From contig CAMGAL010000022.1 of assembly GCA_946007445.1 (NCBI GenBank), positions 1 to 13,735 on the forward strand: a stretch of DNA of 13,735 nt, in the 5' to 3' direction. Made by a program: the position numbers and the translations under genes. Source of the stretch: an uncultured Mediterranea sp. Its GTDB lineage: Bacteria; Bacteroidota; Bacteroidia; Bacteroidales; Bacteroidaceae. Of the stretch, positions 1,268 to 12,426 are shown piece after piece. A model generated the notes under the pieces. That model saw nothing but the letters and a program-made list of their open reading frames with translations, made no database searches and had not been told where the DNA came from. Every line of letters begins with the position of its first letter. Position 1 is the stretch's first letter.

Positions 1268-4200
1268 CAATGGCGTGATACATTTCGCTCCAACGAGGTG
1301 ACATTGGCGATGCTGTCCCGAATCCGCCGGGGGTCAACGACCAGCTCTTTGTCGCGTATCTCGCGCAGCAGGTCGTTGTTGTCCTGCATGAGCCGGACAA
1401 TCTGCAGGCGCAGGTCATCGGGCAGGCTGCTCCAGGCCTGTGTGCTGTTTTGTCCCGACGTTGGGGTTGTGTATCCGCCCTCGTATCGGCCCTTGCCAAG
1501 CTGCACCTGTCGGATGATGGAGGCCGTATCGAGCAGTCGGATGGAACCGTTGCGTTGTGCCACATCGAACACATCCAGGAACTGACGGACAGCGGGATTG
1601 CCCACGGCCTCGTGGTTGGCCACGAACTCGTTGCGGTGTACGGGAATGACTCCGGCCACCTCGTGGTCGTCGCCGCTGCCCGTGTATCCCTCGGAGTATC
1701 CGCCCTGGTAAAGGCCCTTTGCTTCGTCGCGCTGCTGTTTGGCCACTACCAGTTGGGCAGCCCCTTCGGCCACAGCCAAAGCGGCATAGATGGGTCCGAG
1801 GATGGGGCCCAGTTCGGCCCACGACCGCATGACTGCCTGTGCGGTGTCGGCCGTGATGGTGAGTACGTGCATGGCAAACTGCTTGTCGGCATACTTCTTC
1901 TTGACCTCCAGAACGGCAGCCTCCTTCTGCTCTTCGAGGGCGGTGGTATCCTTGCCGGCCTTGCGGGCCGCGGTAATCTCCTTGTCGTACCGGCTCTCCA
2001 CCTTGCGCACCTCGGCGTTCATGAGCGACGAGTATAGCTGCGAGAGTGCCGAGAAGGAGTCACCGATGGCACCGGCTGCATCCTGTGCCGTGATGGTGCG
2101 CTCCTCGTTGCCCTTCTCGCTCTCCTCGGTCATCCGCTGTTCGGCTTCGGCATGAGCCTGCACCTGCTTATCGAGCAGTTGTTGCCTGAGGTCGGTGGCA
2201 TCCATGCCCATGGTCTCCATTAGGGCGATTCGCTCCTCGAGGTTCTGTCGCTCGGCCTCCTTGACGGCATCGAGCATGGCCTGATGGGTATCAATATCCC
2301 CGTTGAGGTATTGCGTCTTGATGGTGTTGATGCGCTCTTGTCCGTTCTGCTGTTGGGTGTCGAGTATCTGCCCGGGCAGGGCACCTCTCACCTTCTGCTG
2401 CTCGGCGTAGAGCCGGTTTGCCTCGTCAATCATGCGGTCGTAGATCTGCCCTTGTATCTCCGCCGTATCTTGTCCGTACCGCTCCATCAGCGACTTGCGT
2501 TCGAGGAGGTAGGCCGTCTCTGCCTCGTAGAGCTGCTGCTGGTACTCGGTCTCGGTCGTCTGTTCAGTGATGCGTGCCATCTTGATGGTGTTGAGCCGGT
2601 CCTGATGAGCCGTAGCCAGACGGGCCGACTGTTCGCGGTAGGCTTTCTCCGGGTCCTGTTCTGCGGTGGGTGTCCCCCCACCCTCTATATGTACCGGGAT
2701 GGACGCCACGAGCTGCTGCAGCCGTTTCTTCTCGTCGATGTAGCCGGCCACGACTGCCATCCGCTCCTTCAGGTCACGCTCCAGTCCATTCATGTAGGAT
2801 TTGCGCAACACCTCGTTGTCACCGGCCAAGTCGAGCAGGCTCTGTTTCTCCTGTTCGTACCACTGCTTGTTGGCCATCATGCTGTTGGTGATGAGTTCGT
2901 CCAGCTGGTCGATGCTGTATAGGGCATCGCTGCGGAGCGCCTGTTTCTGCTTATCCGTCAGGAACTCGATGTTGTCCGCCTTGGCCTTGATGCCTGCGAT
3001 GCGGTCGAGCACCTCCTTGGTCTGTGTGGCTTCGCGGTTGAAGTCAGAGAGGGCCTGTGTGCCGTCGTCCACCTTCTTCCGGAAGAGGGTGAAGTAGGAG
3101 ATGACTGACACCAGTGCGGAGGCAACGAGTCCGAATAGATTGGTCTTGGTGGCCTTATCGAGGGCCACCATGCCCGCTCTGGCTGCCTGTGTGGCGGTAT
3201 GGTAGAGCCACATGGCTGCCGTACCGGCCTTGACGGCTACAGTATAGGCTGCGATGCCGGCCACCAGCGAGAGGAGGGCGCTGCTGTACTTCATGGCGAA
3301 CCCAACGAGCGCAGAGAGCACGCTGATGGTCATCCGCCCCGTCGAAATCATGTACTTCATGTACGGAAGCAGCTGCTCGCCCAGCTCGATGCGCATGTTC
3401 TTGAAGCTCTCCTTGGCCTTGTCGAGCTGCGCCTGGACGGTGTTGTTCTGCACGTTGTACTCGTTGAGTGCGCTGGTGCCGTCGCGGTAGGCCTGATTGG
3501 CCAGCTGCTGCCGCTCGCGTATCTGGTCGGCCTTGGCTGCCATGACAGAAAGCATGGAGCTGACACCGGCCCCCTCGGTCTGCAGGTCGCCAAAGATCTG
3601 CGAGAGGTCGGCCAGTCCGCCCTTCTTGCTGAGCGCTTCGGCGAATTGCAGCAGGGCCTCGTTGGCATCGGAGCGGACGAGTCGGGCGAACTCCTGCAGG
3701 TTGAGTCCGGCTGCCTTGGCGAACTTGTCGGTATCGGTGAACATCTTCATGATGACCTTCTGGAAGGCGGTGGCGGAGGTCTCGTTGCGCAGCATGTTCT
3801 CGTCCATGGCCGCTGCCAGTCCGATGATATCGGCCTGCGTCAGTCCTGCCTGCTGCCCTACCCCGGCCACTCGGGCGGTGAACTCTACGAGGAACTGTTC
3901 GGCTGCGCTGGAGTTCTGAGCTACCTCGTTGACGGCGCTGGCTGTGGCGAGCATGGCACCCCGCAGACCCTTGGTCTCGTCCTCGCCGAACATCTGCGCC
4001 AGCTTGCCGATGTTCTTGACGGCATCCTCGCCGAGGTCTTCGCCCAGGGCCACGTTGATGATGTTGGCTGCATCGACGAACTCCTTGACCGCCTCGCTGG
4101 AGGTGATGCCCAATCGTCCGGCATCGCCTGCCAGGGCGTTGAGTTTCTCGCGCGGTGTCCGGGTGTCCATCCGCTTGAACTCCTCGTTGAGTGCCTGTAC

Positions 4201-10459: not shown

Positions 10460-11794
10460 TTAGAGATTGTTGGTCATGCGGGCCGAGGCGGTGAGGTTCT
10501 CCTCGCGCTGGATGGCCTGCCTGTACAGGCCCATGCGCAGCCGCTTGTCGGGAAAGTTGATGCGCAGGGCGCGGTTGATGCCCTCCAGGGCTATCTCCTC
10601 GGGTATCTGGGTGTCGGCTCCGTAGAAGATCTTGAGGGCGTAGAGCATCTGACTGCCGCTGTCGCTCTTGCCGTCGATGATGATGTTGGCCAGGGCGGGC
10701 GAGAGGCCGAATCCGCTGGTGGTGGATGAGTCGGCAATGCGGCTGATCTTGGCCTGCGCATCGATGTACTTGTCGATGTTCATCTCGATGGGTTCGATGG
10801 CCCACTTCTGCTGGGTGCCGGTGGAGGGGTCGACGAAGTCCACGCACTGGAAGAACTTGCCGGCGTTCTCCTTGCCGGACATCACCTCGGCGATGGTCTG
10901 CGTCAGCTCCTGGCGCAGGCGCTCCATGGCGTTGTGGTAGTCGGCCTCCTGCCATTCGGGGTGCTGCTCTTCGAGTTTGGCCCGCTTGGCCGCCCAGTAC
11001 TCTTGCGGGCAGTGGACGATGTAGGCGGCTGCAATGAGGTTCTCGTTGAGCCGTCGGATGATCTCGGGCAGGTCGTTGGCATTGCGCAGCCAGGGCATGG
11101 AGCCCATGAAGCTGGACATGGCGTAGAAGTTGCGCCCGAAGCTGCGCAGGCAGTGGTAGGCCATGGCCGATGACGCGCGTTCGGCTGCCCGGGTGCCGAG
11201 CACGGGGTAGCGTCGGTAGGTCTGCTGCCGGTAGTTGTCGAAGCGTCCCACGAGGATGTGCGTCACCGCCGAGAGGCGGCGTCTGTCGTCGTTCGGCCAG
11301 ACCAGGCGGCAGTCCGAAGAGGGTTCGCACTCCAGCCGCGCCACCCATGTCTGACCGATGCGATGTCCCTTGCCCATGACGTATCGGGTGAAGTGTCCGT
11401 TCAGTCGGGTGTACTCGACGAGGCAGTGGCGGATGTAGTCGCGGTAGTCCCACGAGTCGAGCCACTGCTGCACGTCGGCATCGGCTGTCCATCGGCGTGA
11501 GGGTTGTCCGTCCACCAGCTCGTCGGTGTAGAGCATGGGGCCCTGTCCGTAGAGCAGGCCCACCTTGCGGTCCAGCACGCCGGGGCCCAGGTTGTTGCGC
11601 TCGAGCATCCGGCGCACGTTGGCCGGGAAGTTGTTGTCCGGCCCCCAGGGTACGACGCGTTCTCCGGCCACGGTGGCGGGGTCGTCGTCCCAGTCGTCGG
11701 AGGTGAGGGAGAAGAGGTCGGCGGTGGTCTGCTCCCAGTTCATGCCGATGGCGTAGGTGCCACGGGCGGTATCGGCGAAATAGAATCTGTCCAT
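10460..11794 (-). CDS. Portal-like protein (444 aa)
   Basis: 444 residues from an ATG at 11792-11794. Portal proteins form the dodecameric ring at one capsid vertex through which DNA is packaged and the tail attaches. The layout fits that family: VVPWGPDNNFP at residues 47-57, LLYGQGPMLY at 80-89 (portals often have a segment around here describing an early helix and a Gly-rich turn), a long central alpha/beta part, PEIIRRLNENLIAAAYIVH at 243-261, a charged helix region at 270-310, and SGFGLSPALANIIIDGKSDS at 360-379, similar to the GLSPxL segment in portals. The length is normal for portals. No terminase precedes it and no recognisable protease or capsid gene follows, so the identification rests on these patterns. 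It begins 26 nt after the encoded CCA end of the tRNA-like RNA. Confidence 0.55.
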   Translation of the reverse strand: MDRFYFADTARGTYAIGMNWEQTTADLFSLTSDDWDDDPATVAGERVVPWGPDNNFPANVRRMLERNNLGPGVLDRKVGLLYGQGPMLYTDELVDGQPSRRWTADADVQQWLDSWDYRDYIRHCLVEYTRLNGHFTRYVMGKGHRIGQTWVARLECEPSSDCRLVWPNDDRRRLSAVTHILVGRFDNYRQQTYRRYPVLGTRAAERASSAMAYHCLRSFGRNFYAMSSFMGSMPWLRNANDLPEIIRRLNENLIAAAYIVHCPQEYWAAKRAKLEEQHPEWQEADYHNAMERLRQELTQTIAEVMSGKENAGKFFQCVDFVDPSTGTQQKWAIEPIEMNIDKYIDAQAKISRIADSSTTSGFGLSPALANIIIDGKSDSGSQMLYALKIFYGADTQIPEEIALEGINRALRINFPDKRLRMGLYRQAIQREENLTASARMTNNL

Positions 11795-11820: not shown

Positions 11821-11930
11821 TGGCGACCTGTGGGGGAATCGAACCCCCGTTGCTACCAGATTATCAAAACGTCGCGGATTGCTCCGTGGACTTTACATTC
11901 ATGTCCGCTACCATTCGGACGTAGCAGGTC
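11821..11930 (-). ncRNA. tRNA-like structured RNA lacking a recognisable anticodon arm
   Basis: Reading the minus strand from 11930: 5' acceptor GACCTGC (11930-11924) pairs with ACAGGTC (11831-11825) in six of seven positions, with one C-A mismatch at the base. TAC follows, then a D-arm of GTCC/GGAC (11920-11917 with 11906-11903) whose loop GAATGGTAGC contains the usual GG. The 3' part has a perfect T-arm, GGGGG-TTCGATT-CCCCC (11848-11832), then discriminator G and an encoded CCA (11823-11821). Between D-arm and T-arm are 54 nt in which I found no 5-bp stem with a 7-nt loop. Instead CGGA-GCAA-TCCG (11886-11875), flanked by GTC/GAC, forms a GNRA-capped hairpin. GCTAC at the acceptor base can also pair with GTAGC (11856-11852). 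It is therefore not an ordinary decoding tRNA; a processing signal, tRNA mimic or decayed tRNA are the options. Confidence 0.6.
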
Positions 11931-11936
11931 GGTGTT

Positions 11937-11952
11937 GCCGGTCTTTCCCGGC
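11937..11952 (-). other. GC-rich stem-loop just upstream of the tRNA-like RNA
   Basis: Minus strand GCCGG (11952-11948) and CCGGC (11941-11937) form a perfect 5-bp stem with the 6-nt loop GAAAGA. It ends six bases before the 5' end of the acceptor stem. No T run follows, so it is not a terminator; it may be part of the same RNA or a 5' processing context. Confidence 0.5.
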
Positions 11953-11965
11953 TGTCAGCCAAGCA

Positions 11966-11981
11966 CCTCTCTATGTAGAGG
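11966..11981 (-). other. Stem-loop over the stop codon of the 151-aa gene
   Basis: Minus strand CCTCT (11981-11977) and AGAGG (11970-11966) form a 5-bp stem with loop ACATAG; the loop contains the TAG stop codon (11973-11971). No T tract follows. It may protect the 3' end of the upstream message. Confidence 0.4.
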
Positions 11982-12426
11982 GGTCCCTGTTCGTGTTTTC
12001 GCGGTTCTGCAGGATGCCCTTGAGCCGCTGTATCTCTTGTTCGCTGAGTCCGTACATCAGTCGGCTGATGAGTGCATAGAGGCTGGTGTACATGTACTTG
12101 GCGTACCACTTGTGTGAGTTCTGCTTCATGCGGTTCTGTTTGATGCCCCATATCTCGCGGTTGGTGTCCACCGTGTGCTTGTTGCGCCGGTAGTCGAGCA
12201 TATCGACGCATCGGCCGTAGCTGACGAAGCGGAACCGGAGACCCGGGTTGCCGTCCTGCTCGAAGGCATCGTAGCGGATGCTCTCTTGCAGGAGGCCCGA
12301 GTCGGTGAGATGCTGCCGCTCGATCCTCTCGGACAGCAGGTCGGCCAGCATCTCTCCGTGGAGACTGAGTGTCTCTTGGAAGTGAAGTTTCACCAATTCG
12401 TCGTCAGTCTCCTTTACACTAATCAT
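11971..12426 (-). CDS. Tail-completion (HK97 gp10-like) candidate (151 aa)
   Basis: 151 residues from an ATG at 12424-12426, the first gene after promoter P3. The sequence shows a helical N-terminus, HLTDSGLLQESIRYDAF at residues about 40-56, LRFRFVSYGRCVDMLDYRRN at 63-82, and a C-terminal helix region KWYAKYMYTSLYALISRLMY. The pattern of a 'GxLxxSI' helix, a beta strand running into 'YGRxxDM', and a late KWY helix resembles small gp10-like proteins that finish and join phage tails in Bacteroidota phages; this is recall plus inference. Its place before the portal-like gene is unusual, because gp10-like genes normally follow the capsid gene. The tRNA-like RNA starts about 40 nt after its stop codon. 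A minor head protein is an alternative. Confidence 0.6.
   Translation of the reverse strand: MISVKETDDELVKLHFQETLSLHGEMLADLLSERIERQHLTDSGLLQESIRYDAFEQDGNPGLRFRFVSYGRCVDMLDYRRNKHTVDTNREIWGIKQNRMKQNSHKWYAKYMYTSLYALISRLMYGLSEQEIQRLKGILQNRENTNRDPST

What the first reader, a model, noticed from the sequence alone, without database searches (positions are those of the whole stretch)
11821..11930. tRNA-like RNA with CCA end but no anticodon arm, in the middle of a phage late operon
The ends fold like a tRNA: acceptor (6 of 7 pairs), D-arm with a GG-containing loop, perfect 5-bp T-arm with a TTCGATT loop, discriminator and encoded CCA. The 54 nt between the D- and T-arms contain no 5-bp/7-nt anticodon arm; I checked each register for Watson-Crick and G-U pairs. 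They do contain a GCAA-tetraloop hairpin. Such an element could recruit RNase P and 3' processing enzymes to cut the operon mRNA, mimic tRNA for a host factor, or be a tRNA carrying an insertion. Its location, strand and closeness to the next start codon (26 nt) argue for a function in late mRNA.
Basis: partly seen in the sequence, partly recalled or inferred. Interest (0 to 1): 0.72.

Follow-up and report, generated by a model that had tools for sequence, protein, structure and literature searches.

The report
Phage tRNA mimic without anticodon arm
A virus of Bacteroidales bacteria carries a small RNA shaped like a transfer RNA but without the arm that reads the genetic code; similar RNAs in other viruses keep their remaining arms, so they probably serve something other than decoding, most likely the cutting of viral RNA.

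Summary
On the minus strand at 11930-11821 lies a tRNA-like RNA with acceptor helix, D-arm, T-arm and CCA but no proper anticodon arm; ARAGORN does not call it. Its D-arm led to ten related sequences in Bacteroidales (Prevotella, Segatella, Caecibacteroides, Phocaeicola) with only 14-29 nt between D- and T-arm; nine show no anticodon-like hairpin, one (C. pullorum) has a 5-bp hairpin with 6-nt loop. A covariance model built without the window finds the window element at E = 9e-7 in its whole MAG. All six acceptor pairs show compensatory changes. Several relatives lie in front of Mu-like transposase genes; R2 finds the element in none of 32 portal relatives. The GCAA hairpin is not conserved. 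A pattern for D- and T-arms too close for an anticodon arm found 59 viral contigs (44 distinct elements), 38 of 44 with at least 6 of 7 acceptor pairs. The window element and some others follow, by a few nt, a hairpin with fixed GAAAGA loop and covarying stem. Best reading: a tRNA top-half mimic cut by RNase P and tRNA 3'-processing enzymes, used for RNA end formation. Function is inferred; no expression data were available.

The parts
11821..11930 (-). whole tRNA-like RNA without anticodon arm (110 nt)
11925..11930 (-). acceptor helix, 5' strand GACCTG (6 bp); C7 at 11924 faces A at 11831
   Evidence: sequence; all 6 pairs with compensatory changes in the family
11903..11920 (-). D-arm GTCCG-AATGGTAG-CGGAC, the family signature
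   Evidence: same 18-mer in most relatives; TCCCG/CGGGA in L329, G-T closing pair in L332, 9-nt loop in L537/L550
11849..11902 (-). 54-nt stretch where an anticodon arm would be; ten relatives have 14-29 nt here
11875..11886 (-).
   Evidence: some relatives share CGGAGCRA but not the closing TCCG
11832..11848 (-). T-arm GGGGG-TTCGATT-CCCCC
   Evidence: Rfam T-arm match
11821..11830 (-). acceptor 3' strand CAGGTC, discriminator G, encoded CCA
11937..11956 (-). leader hairpin GACA-GCCGG-GAAAGA-CCGGC, 6 nt upstream of the tRNA-like 5' end
   Evidence: coordinates; occurrence and spacing
10460..11794 (-). portal-like gene, start codon 26 nt downstream of the CCA end
   Evidence: phrog_22277, unknown function; annotated portal proteins in phages
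11971..12426 (-). small phage gene upstream; in viral relatives of the portal the upstream ORF ends within about 50 nt of the portal start

Best explanation
The element is a phage-encoded mimic of the top half of a tRNA (acceptor helix plus T-arm, held by the D-loop/T-loop contact) that cannot decode. Shown: the family, the conserved arms with compensatory changes, the missing anticodon arm, the leader hairpin and its spacing. Inferred: in the late transcript it folds as a tRNA elbow; host RNase P cuts at G11930 and host tRNA 3' processing cuts or trims to CCA. This separates the upstream message from the portal message, leaves the GAAAGA-loop hairpin near the 3' end of the upstream RNA, and releases a short stable RNA that may also act on its own. 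What is kept is what tRNA-processing enzymes read; what is lost is what the ribosome reads.
For: R2 (without the window) finds the window element at E = 9.2e-7 genome-wide. On 10 members 98.7% of cells pair (shuffled 82.5), 9 of 16 pairs have changes on both sides, covariation score 0.418 against 0.113 in shuffles and at most 0.079 when slid by 1-3 columns. Spacers are 14-29 nt in ten relatives; nine contain no 5-bp/7-nt arm with even four pairs. Of 44 distinct armless elements from other viral contigs, 38 have >=6 of 7 acceptor pairs (shuffled mean 3.5, max 10) and 43 the full outer T-stem (shuffled max 16). L538, L541 and L545 are reduced further but keep a 7-bp acceptor and T-arm. Hairpin: 13 of 121 have a tRNA or tRNA-like starting 4-8 nt downstream, against 0-3 per 6-nt bin elsewhere. 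RNase P is reported to process phage M3 RNA, phage-derived C4 antisense RNA and other non-tRNAs (PMC11143913, passages).
Against: No expression or cleavage data. The tRNA-like fold is 10 kcal/mol above the predicted minimum for the isolated window sequence. The acceptor is 6 bp with a C.A mismatch, where RNase P leaves 7 bp in ordinary tRNAs. The nine aligned relatives do not encode CCA. The C. pullorum member has a 5-bp hairpin with 6-nt loop in the middle. Within this family the GAAAGA hairpin was seen upstream of the window member only, and 108 of 121 hairpins have no recognised tRNA-like 4-8 nt after them. In Mu-like phages, 8 of 13 elements at that place have another D-arm, and ARAGORN of these 8 as tRNA-Ser(act) or tRNA-???. 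Of 44 armless elements elsewhere, 5 lie opposite to both neighbouring ORFs and 3 between convergent ORFs (crude ORF calls), which fits an independent RNA gene better.
Confidence: 0.43

Rival explanations
1. A stand-alone small RNA that acts in trans: a decoy or carrier that binds a host factor which recognises the tRNA elbow or acceptor end (for example CCA-adding enzyme, EF-Tu, a tRNA-modifying or defence enzyme). Processing would only be its maturation.
For: Armless elements occur as single genes: 35 of 44 loci hold no ARAGORN tRNA; 5 are opposite in strand to both neighbours. The element stays in place when another ORF lies between it and the regulator gene (L326, L332).
Against: In the window and the Prevotella-type members it lies between same-strand genes, about 20-30 nt before a start codon. 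No partner factor is known.
Confidence: 0.3
2. A decaying tRNA gene, fixed by chance after loss of its anticodon arm.
For: Phage tRNAs are gained and lost often (general knowledge). A fresh deletion would keep acceptor pairing for a while, so the 44 elements alone do not exclude this. The window member carries about 30 nt more than L325 (alignment by eye).
Against: Within a family that is already armless all 6 acceptor pairs have changed on both sides together, while D-loop and T-loop stay nearly constant. Five Mu-like loci keep the family member at the same distance from the transposase, 487-495 nt.
Confidence: 0.1
3. A functional tRNA interrupted by a short intron in the anticodon region.
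For: Other viral loci look like tRNA-Asn with 32, 43 and 81 nt inserted in the anticodon loop (L185, L227, L257). One split of the 54 nt gives five pairs (GAATG/CGTTT, two of them G-T, 18 nt before the T-stem) and one gives four Watson-Crick pairs (ATGAA/TTGAT).
Against: ARAGORN finds no intron model at its normal threshold. Nine of ten relatives have no anticodon-like hairpin, and five have 20 nt or less between the arms.
Confidence: 0.07
4. A cis-acting RNA switch in the leader of the downstream gene, for example alternative pairing of GCTAC with the GTAGC copies controlling translation of the portal.
For: GCTAC can pair with GTAGC at two places in the window, and the minimum-energy fold uses one. 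The start codon is 26 nt away.
Against: The second GTAGC copy is absent from the relatives' spacers, and the downstream genes differ between members.
Confidence: 0.1

Closest known systems
tRNA (Rfam RF00005), including phage tRNAs
   Same: acceptor, D-loop GG, T-loop TTCGANT, discriminator, CCA in the window; Rfam's tRNA model accepts at least one armless element (L376, 48.6 bits)
   Different: no proper anticodon arm, 6-bp acceptor with C.A in the window, not called by ARAGORN; 35 of 44 armless elements elsewhere have no ARAGORN tRNA in their locus
Phage RNase P substrates that are not tRNAs: C4 antisense RNA, M3 RNA (named in PMC11143913, passages only)
   Same: phage non-coding RNAs processed by the tRNA 5'-end enzyme
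   Different: no C4 match in Rfam (that Rfam holds a C4 family is recalled); the present family keeps D- and T-loops; M3 was not compared
tmRNA tRNA-like domain
   Same: tRNA top half on a non-tRNA; T-arm match in Rfam
   Different: only 18 positions match, below the gathering score
MALAT1/mascRNA 3'-end formation (recalled, no call)
   Same: a tRNA-like cut by RNase P that gives the upstream RNA a structured 3' end
   Different: eukaryotic, triple helix; here a simple hairpin in phages, untested
Armless mitochondrial tRNAs (recalled, no call)
   Same: loss of a cloverleaf arm
   Different: those lose D- or T-arm and still decode; here the decoding arm is lost
Bacterial Y RNAs with tRNA-like domain (recalled, no call)
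   Same: non-coding tRNA mimic in bacteria
   Different: not compared directly

Membership tests
tRNA | anticodon arm with 5-bp stem and 7-nt loop | tested here: not met
   no register with five pairs, two with four of five; ARAGORN none
tRNA | T-arm with TTCRANY loop and D-loop GG | tested here: met
tRNA | 7-bp acceptor | tested here: not met
   6 bp plus C.A in window, L302 and L329; 6 bp in the Prevotella-type members, one mismatch in L322
tRNA | CCA 3' end | tested here: met
   encoded in the window; the nine aligned relatives read CAC, CAT, CAA or CGA there
tmRNA | tag reading frame and pseudoknots beside the tRNA-like domain | tested here: not met
   Rfam match limited to 18 positions, 18.5 of 47 bits; ARAGORN only at lowered threshold, 'Tag not identified'
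RNase P substrate of the minimal kind (acceptor plus T-arm) | acceptor and T-arm helices with a free 5' leader | tested here: met
   conserved helices; that these suffice is recalled
RNase P substrate of the minimal kind (acceptor plus T-arm) | actual cleavage | not testable with these tools
   needs in vitro cleavage or RNA-seq
C4 antisense RNA of phages | Rfam model match | tested here: not met
   no match among hits up to E = 10; that Rfam holds this family is recalled

The most novel reading that the evidence does not exclude
Phages of many bacterial hosts share a two-part RNA module, a hairpin with an invariant GAAAGA loop followed within a few nt by a tRNA or by a tRNA stripped of its anticodon arm, that borrows host RNase P to make and cap RNA 3' ends: a phage counterpart of MALAT1/mascRNA.
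Probability: 0.2. Interest if true: 0.9.

Novelty: new variant of a known kind. Interest (0 to 1): 0.72.

Why it matters
If the elements are processed as predicted, phages use the host tRNA-maturation machinery as RNA scissors through a reduced tRNA mimic that ARAGORN misses: it called none of the 44 distinct armless elements nor the family members tested. Rfam's tRNA model does accept at least L376, so such elements may sit unexplained in annotations. They would give a natural test of which tRNA parts suffice for RNase P, CCA addition and elbow-reading enzymes without decoding.

Tried and rejected
GCAA hairpin as the functional core: rejected, not conserved. Intron-bearing tRNA: no ARAGORN model at its normal threshold, though two weak splits can be drawn. 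Cis element of the portal gene: R2 finds nothing in 32 portal relatives. Host tRNA copy: BLAST in 158 congeneric genomes (capped listing) matched mostly the T-arm stretch, intergenic repeats and short scattered pieces; the T-arm matches that I looked at (L162, L164, L166, L167, L170) are host tRNA-Glu(TTC). R1 in 297 genomes: 181 had a match at E<=1, own included (capped listing); G094 is the one relative recognised; some others coincide with the tRNA-Glu sites and the rest were not checked one by one. R2 in 393 Bacteroidales genomes (strict filters): 14 with a match at E<=0.001, namely the window, 12 canonical tRNAs and L334, a 71-nt tRNA-???. BLAST of single elements against named phages: none or only partial matches, none covering 80% (42 records; 2268 records, several of the rows shown being annotated tRNAs); E. 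coli none. A descriptor survey of 301 loci gave 54 abnormal-length and 62 normal-length candidates without an ARAGORN call against 8 hits of any length in one Markov control; it includes false hits and window copies and is not used for the claims. A stricter descriptor found no armless element besides those of the AGCTC pattern in 3.9 Mb of fetched loci. Terminator-like sites within 110 nt downstream of the hairpin: 8 of 114, against 1 of 114 upstream and 1 of 105 further downstream; suggestive only.

Mended on re-check: the Mu-like elements with another D-arm are partly called by ARAGORN, weak intron splits exist, and C. pullorum has a hairpin. I lowered the best reading from 0.45 to 0.43, raised the intron rival from 0.05 to 0.07, and lowered interest from 0.74 to 0.72.

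Literature: searches and look-up failed; 101, 102, 106 and 107 ran and, by titles and starts of abstracts, listed no paper on anticodon-armless phage tRNA-likes (open-licence PMC only). eLife 85183 and PMC12482277 were searched for terms only; in eLife 85183 none of the six terms occurs.

Full report
Observation. The minus strand 11930-11821 reads GACCTG-C-TAC-GTCCG-AATGGTAG-CGGAC-(54 nt)-GGGGG-TTCGATT-CCCCC-A-CAGGTC-G-CCA. ARAGORN finds no tRNA or tmRNA in the window and no intron-bearing tRNA around it at its normal threshold. In the 54 nt no 5-bp/7-nt arm has five pairs; two registers have four. Rfam finds the T-arm as tmRNA, far below its gathering score, and a plus-strand match at E = 4.7. 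The window is the whole contig C22 of a 2.43-Mb MAG of 394 contigs. Same-strand phage genes surround it: a tape-measure gene further on and directly downstream a portal-like gene (phrog_22277, unknown function; annotated portal proteins at 31-33% identity in Cellulophaga and Bacteroides phages).

Is it private to this phage? The portal gene has 25 viral relatives and matches in 11 other genomes. In the 25 viral relatives the upstream ORF ends within about 50 nt of the portal start. R2 finds no element in 32 of these loci (25 viral, 7 genomic). So it is probably an addition in this phage. BLAST of the element in 158 genomes of the genus returned mostly T-arm stretches of host tRNA-Glu and short repeats.

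The family. Both share the D-arm GTCCG-AATGGTAG-CGGAC. Searching for it gave six viral contigs and, with a T-arm, five genome contigs: Prevotella aurantiaca, Segatella baroniae, Candidatus Phocaeicola faecipullorum, Prevotella oulorum and C. pullorum; some are the same loci. One search added L332 and one search added L537/L550. There are ten distinct sequences besides the window. The C. pullorum and Phocaeicola surroundings were not tested against phage families. Spacers between D- and T-arm are 14, 15, 17, 19, 20, 23, 25, 25, 25 and 29 nt. Nine contain no 5-bp/7-nt arm with even four pairs and no perfect 4- or 5-bp hairpin with a 6-8 nt loop; C. pullorum has GATGG-TCATCA-CCATC.

Test of membership and structure. 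R2 was built only from C. pullorum and Ca. P. faecipullorum. It finds the window at 39.3 bits, E = 3e-8 in 82 kb and 9.2e-7 in the MAG; among 393 Bacteroidales genomes (strict filters) the window is the only armless member at E <= 0.001. On the alignment of 10 members 98.7% of cells form standard pairs; all six acceptor pairs, one D pair and two T pairs change on both sides; covariation 0.418 against 0.113 (sd 0.028) in shuffles and at most 0.079 slid. That alignment was fitted to the model and leans towards it; the window's D 3' strand is placed differently there than I place it by eye.

Context. In the Prevotella-type members with enough sequence the element lies between a small gene and a regulator-like gene, followed by a long ORF; the ORF of L324 served as MuA query, and a similar ORF in L484 matches phrog_310, transposase. 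In L326 and L332 another ORF lies between element and regulator. Of 43 loci, 13 have an acceptor+D+T element 487-1217 nt before the transposase. Five of these are the GTCCG family (487-495 nt), not called by ARAGORN. The other eight have another D-arm; ARAGORN calls three as tRNA-Ser(act), three as tRNA-??? and two not at all, so some anticodon arm can be drawn there. The remaining 30 gave none by that descriptor, four of them with 0-290 nt of upstream sequence. Among the 30, L538 and L541 have a shorter form with 7-bp acceptor and perfect T-arm; L540 is weaker; L545 has a GAAAGA-loop hairpin (without the GAC), 7-bp acceptor and T-arm; L547 and L551 have the hairpin and T-arm but no convincing acceptor; none of the six is called by ARAGORN. 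L329 carries four more tRNA-like candidates near its member, none called by ARAGORN.

Wider class. The pattern AGCTCANNNGGTNAGAGC N{6,19} GGTTCRANTCC, which leaves no room for an anticodon arm, gave 59 viral contigs. The acceptor is not in the pattern: 33 of 59 pair 7 of 7, 51 at least 6 of 7 and 8 fewer. Of 44 distinct ones 38 reach 6 of 7 against a shuffled mean of 3.5 and maximum of 10; the outer T-stem is complete in 43 of 44 against a shuffled maximum of 16. The D-stem is fixed by the pattern and says nothing. Complementarity alone could come from recent deletions in ordinary tRNAs; the compensatory changes inside the Bacteroidales family are the stronger evidence for selection. 35 of 44 loci hold no ARAGORN tRNA. 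Neighbouring ORFs (crude calls) are both on the same strand in 18, only the downstream one in 12, only the upstream one in 3, neither in 5, incomplete in 6. One of the 44 (L484) lies 22 nt before the transposase ORF. Of 30 neighbour proteins printed ten were given to PHROGs: two portals, two terminase small subunits, one transposase, two endolysins, two of unknown function, one without match.

Leader hairpin. At 11956-11937, 6 nt before the element, lies GACA-GCCGG-GAAAGA-CCGGC. It also occurs in named phages; of nine regions looked at, seven have it outside annotated genes, one inside a short hypothetical gene and one record is unannotated. In 13 of 121 a tRNA or tRNA-like begins 4-8 nt after it, several of them ordinary tRNAs; other 6-nt bins hold 0-3. 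In loci not chosen for the hairpin there are 13 matches to the general form (10 distinct), none for six permuted loops, with five stem types. Of the 10 distinct, the window included, 8 lead straight into a T-arm-bearing element, one precedes the second hairpin of L497, and L163 has none; most of these loci had been fetched for T-arms, armless patterns or MuA, so this is no unbiased count. Its function is unknown to me, and Rfam lists no family for it in the loci tried.

Mechanism. What is conserved (acceptor, T-arm, elbow) is what RNase P, tRNA 3' processing and CCA addition read; what is lost is what the ribosome reads (general knowledge). Hence processing is the best reading: a cut at G11930 leaves the upstream RNA with the hairpin near its 3' end, and the portal message starts about 26 nt before its ATG. 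RNase P is reported to process several non-tRNA phage RNAs and mRNAs (PMC11143913, passages). Every functional step is inference. The main rival is an independent small RNA acting on a host factor.

Novelty. Searches listed, by titles and abstract starts, no description of anticodon-armless tRNA-likes in phages; they cover open-licence PMC papers only and eight other searches failed. I rate it a new variant of a known kind (tRNA-like RNAs), with a bolder reading given apart.

Noticed in passing
L185 2743-2849 (-), L227 269-386 (-), L257 8138-8294 (-): Viral tRNA-Asn-like genes for which ARAGORN draws introns of 32, 43 and 81 nt in the anticodon loop; the insert in L257 itself looks tRNA-like by eye.
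   Followed up: partly
L184 3375-3495, L231 581-701 (-), L297 1462-1581: Three phage tRNA-likes share an insert with a CCTGNNAAGGAT-like hairpin and a second similar one, a possible separate family (by eye).
   Followed up: no
L329 (Ca. Phocaeicola faecipullorum contig), rc 1854-3310: Five tRNA-like candidates none of which ARAGORN calls, one with a 12-nt anticodon loop by eye.
   Followed up: partly
L346-L465, window 11937-11956: Hairpin GACAGCCGGGAAAGACCGGC in at least 120 viral contigs (19-mer), function unknown; 7-bp closing stems are more frequent 11-13 nt after it (13-15 of 114).
   Followed up: partly
L474 901-1581: Human faecal phage scaffold with the hairpin, a tRNA match 6 nt later and a tmRNA match (91 bits) downstream.
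   Followed up: no
L334 1501-1573: 71-nt tRNA-like with abnormal anticodon arm about 25 nt before an ATG in a Bacteroidales genome; ARAGORN labels it tRNA-???.
   Followed up: no
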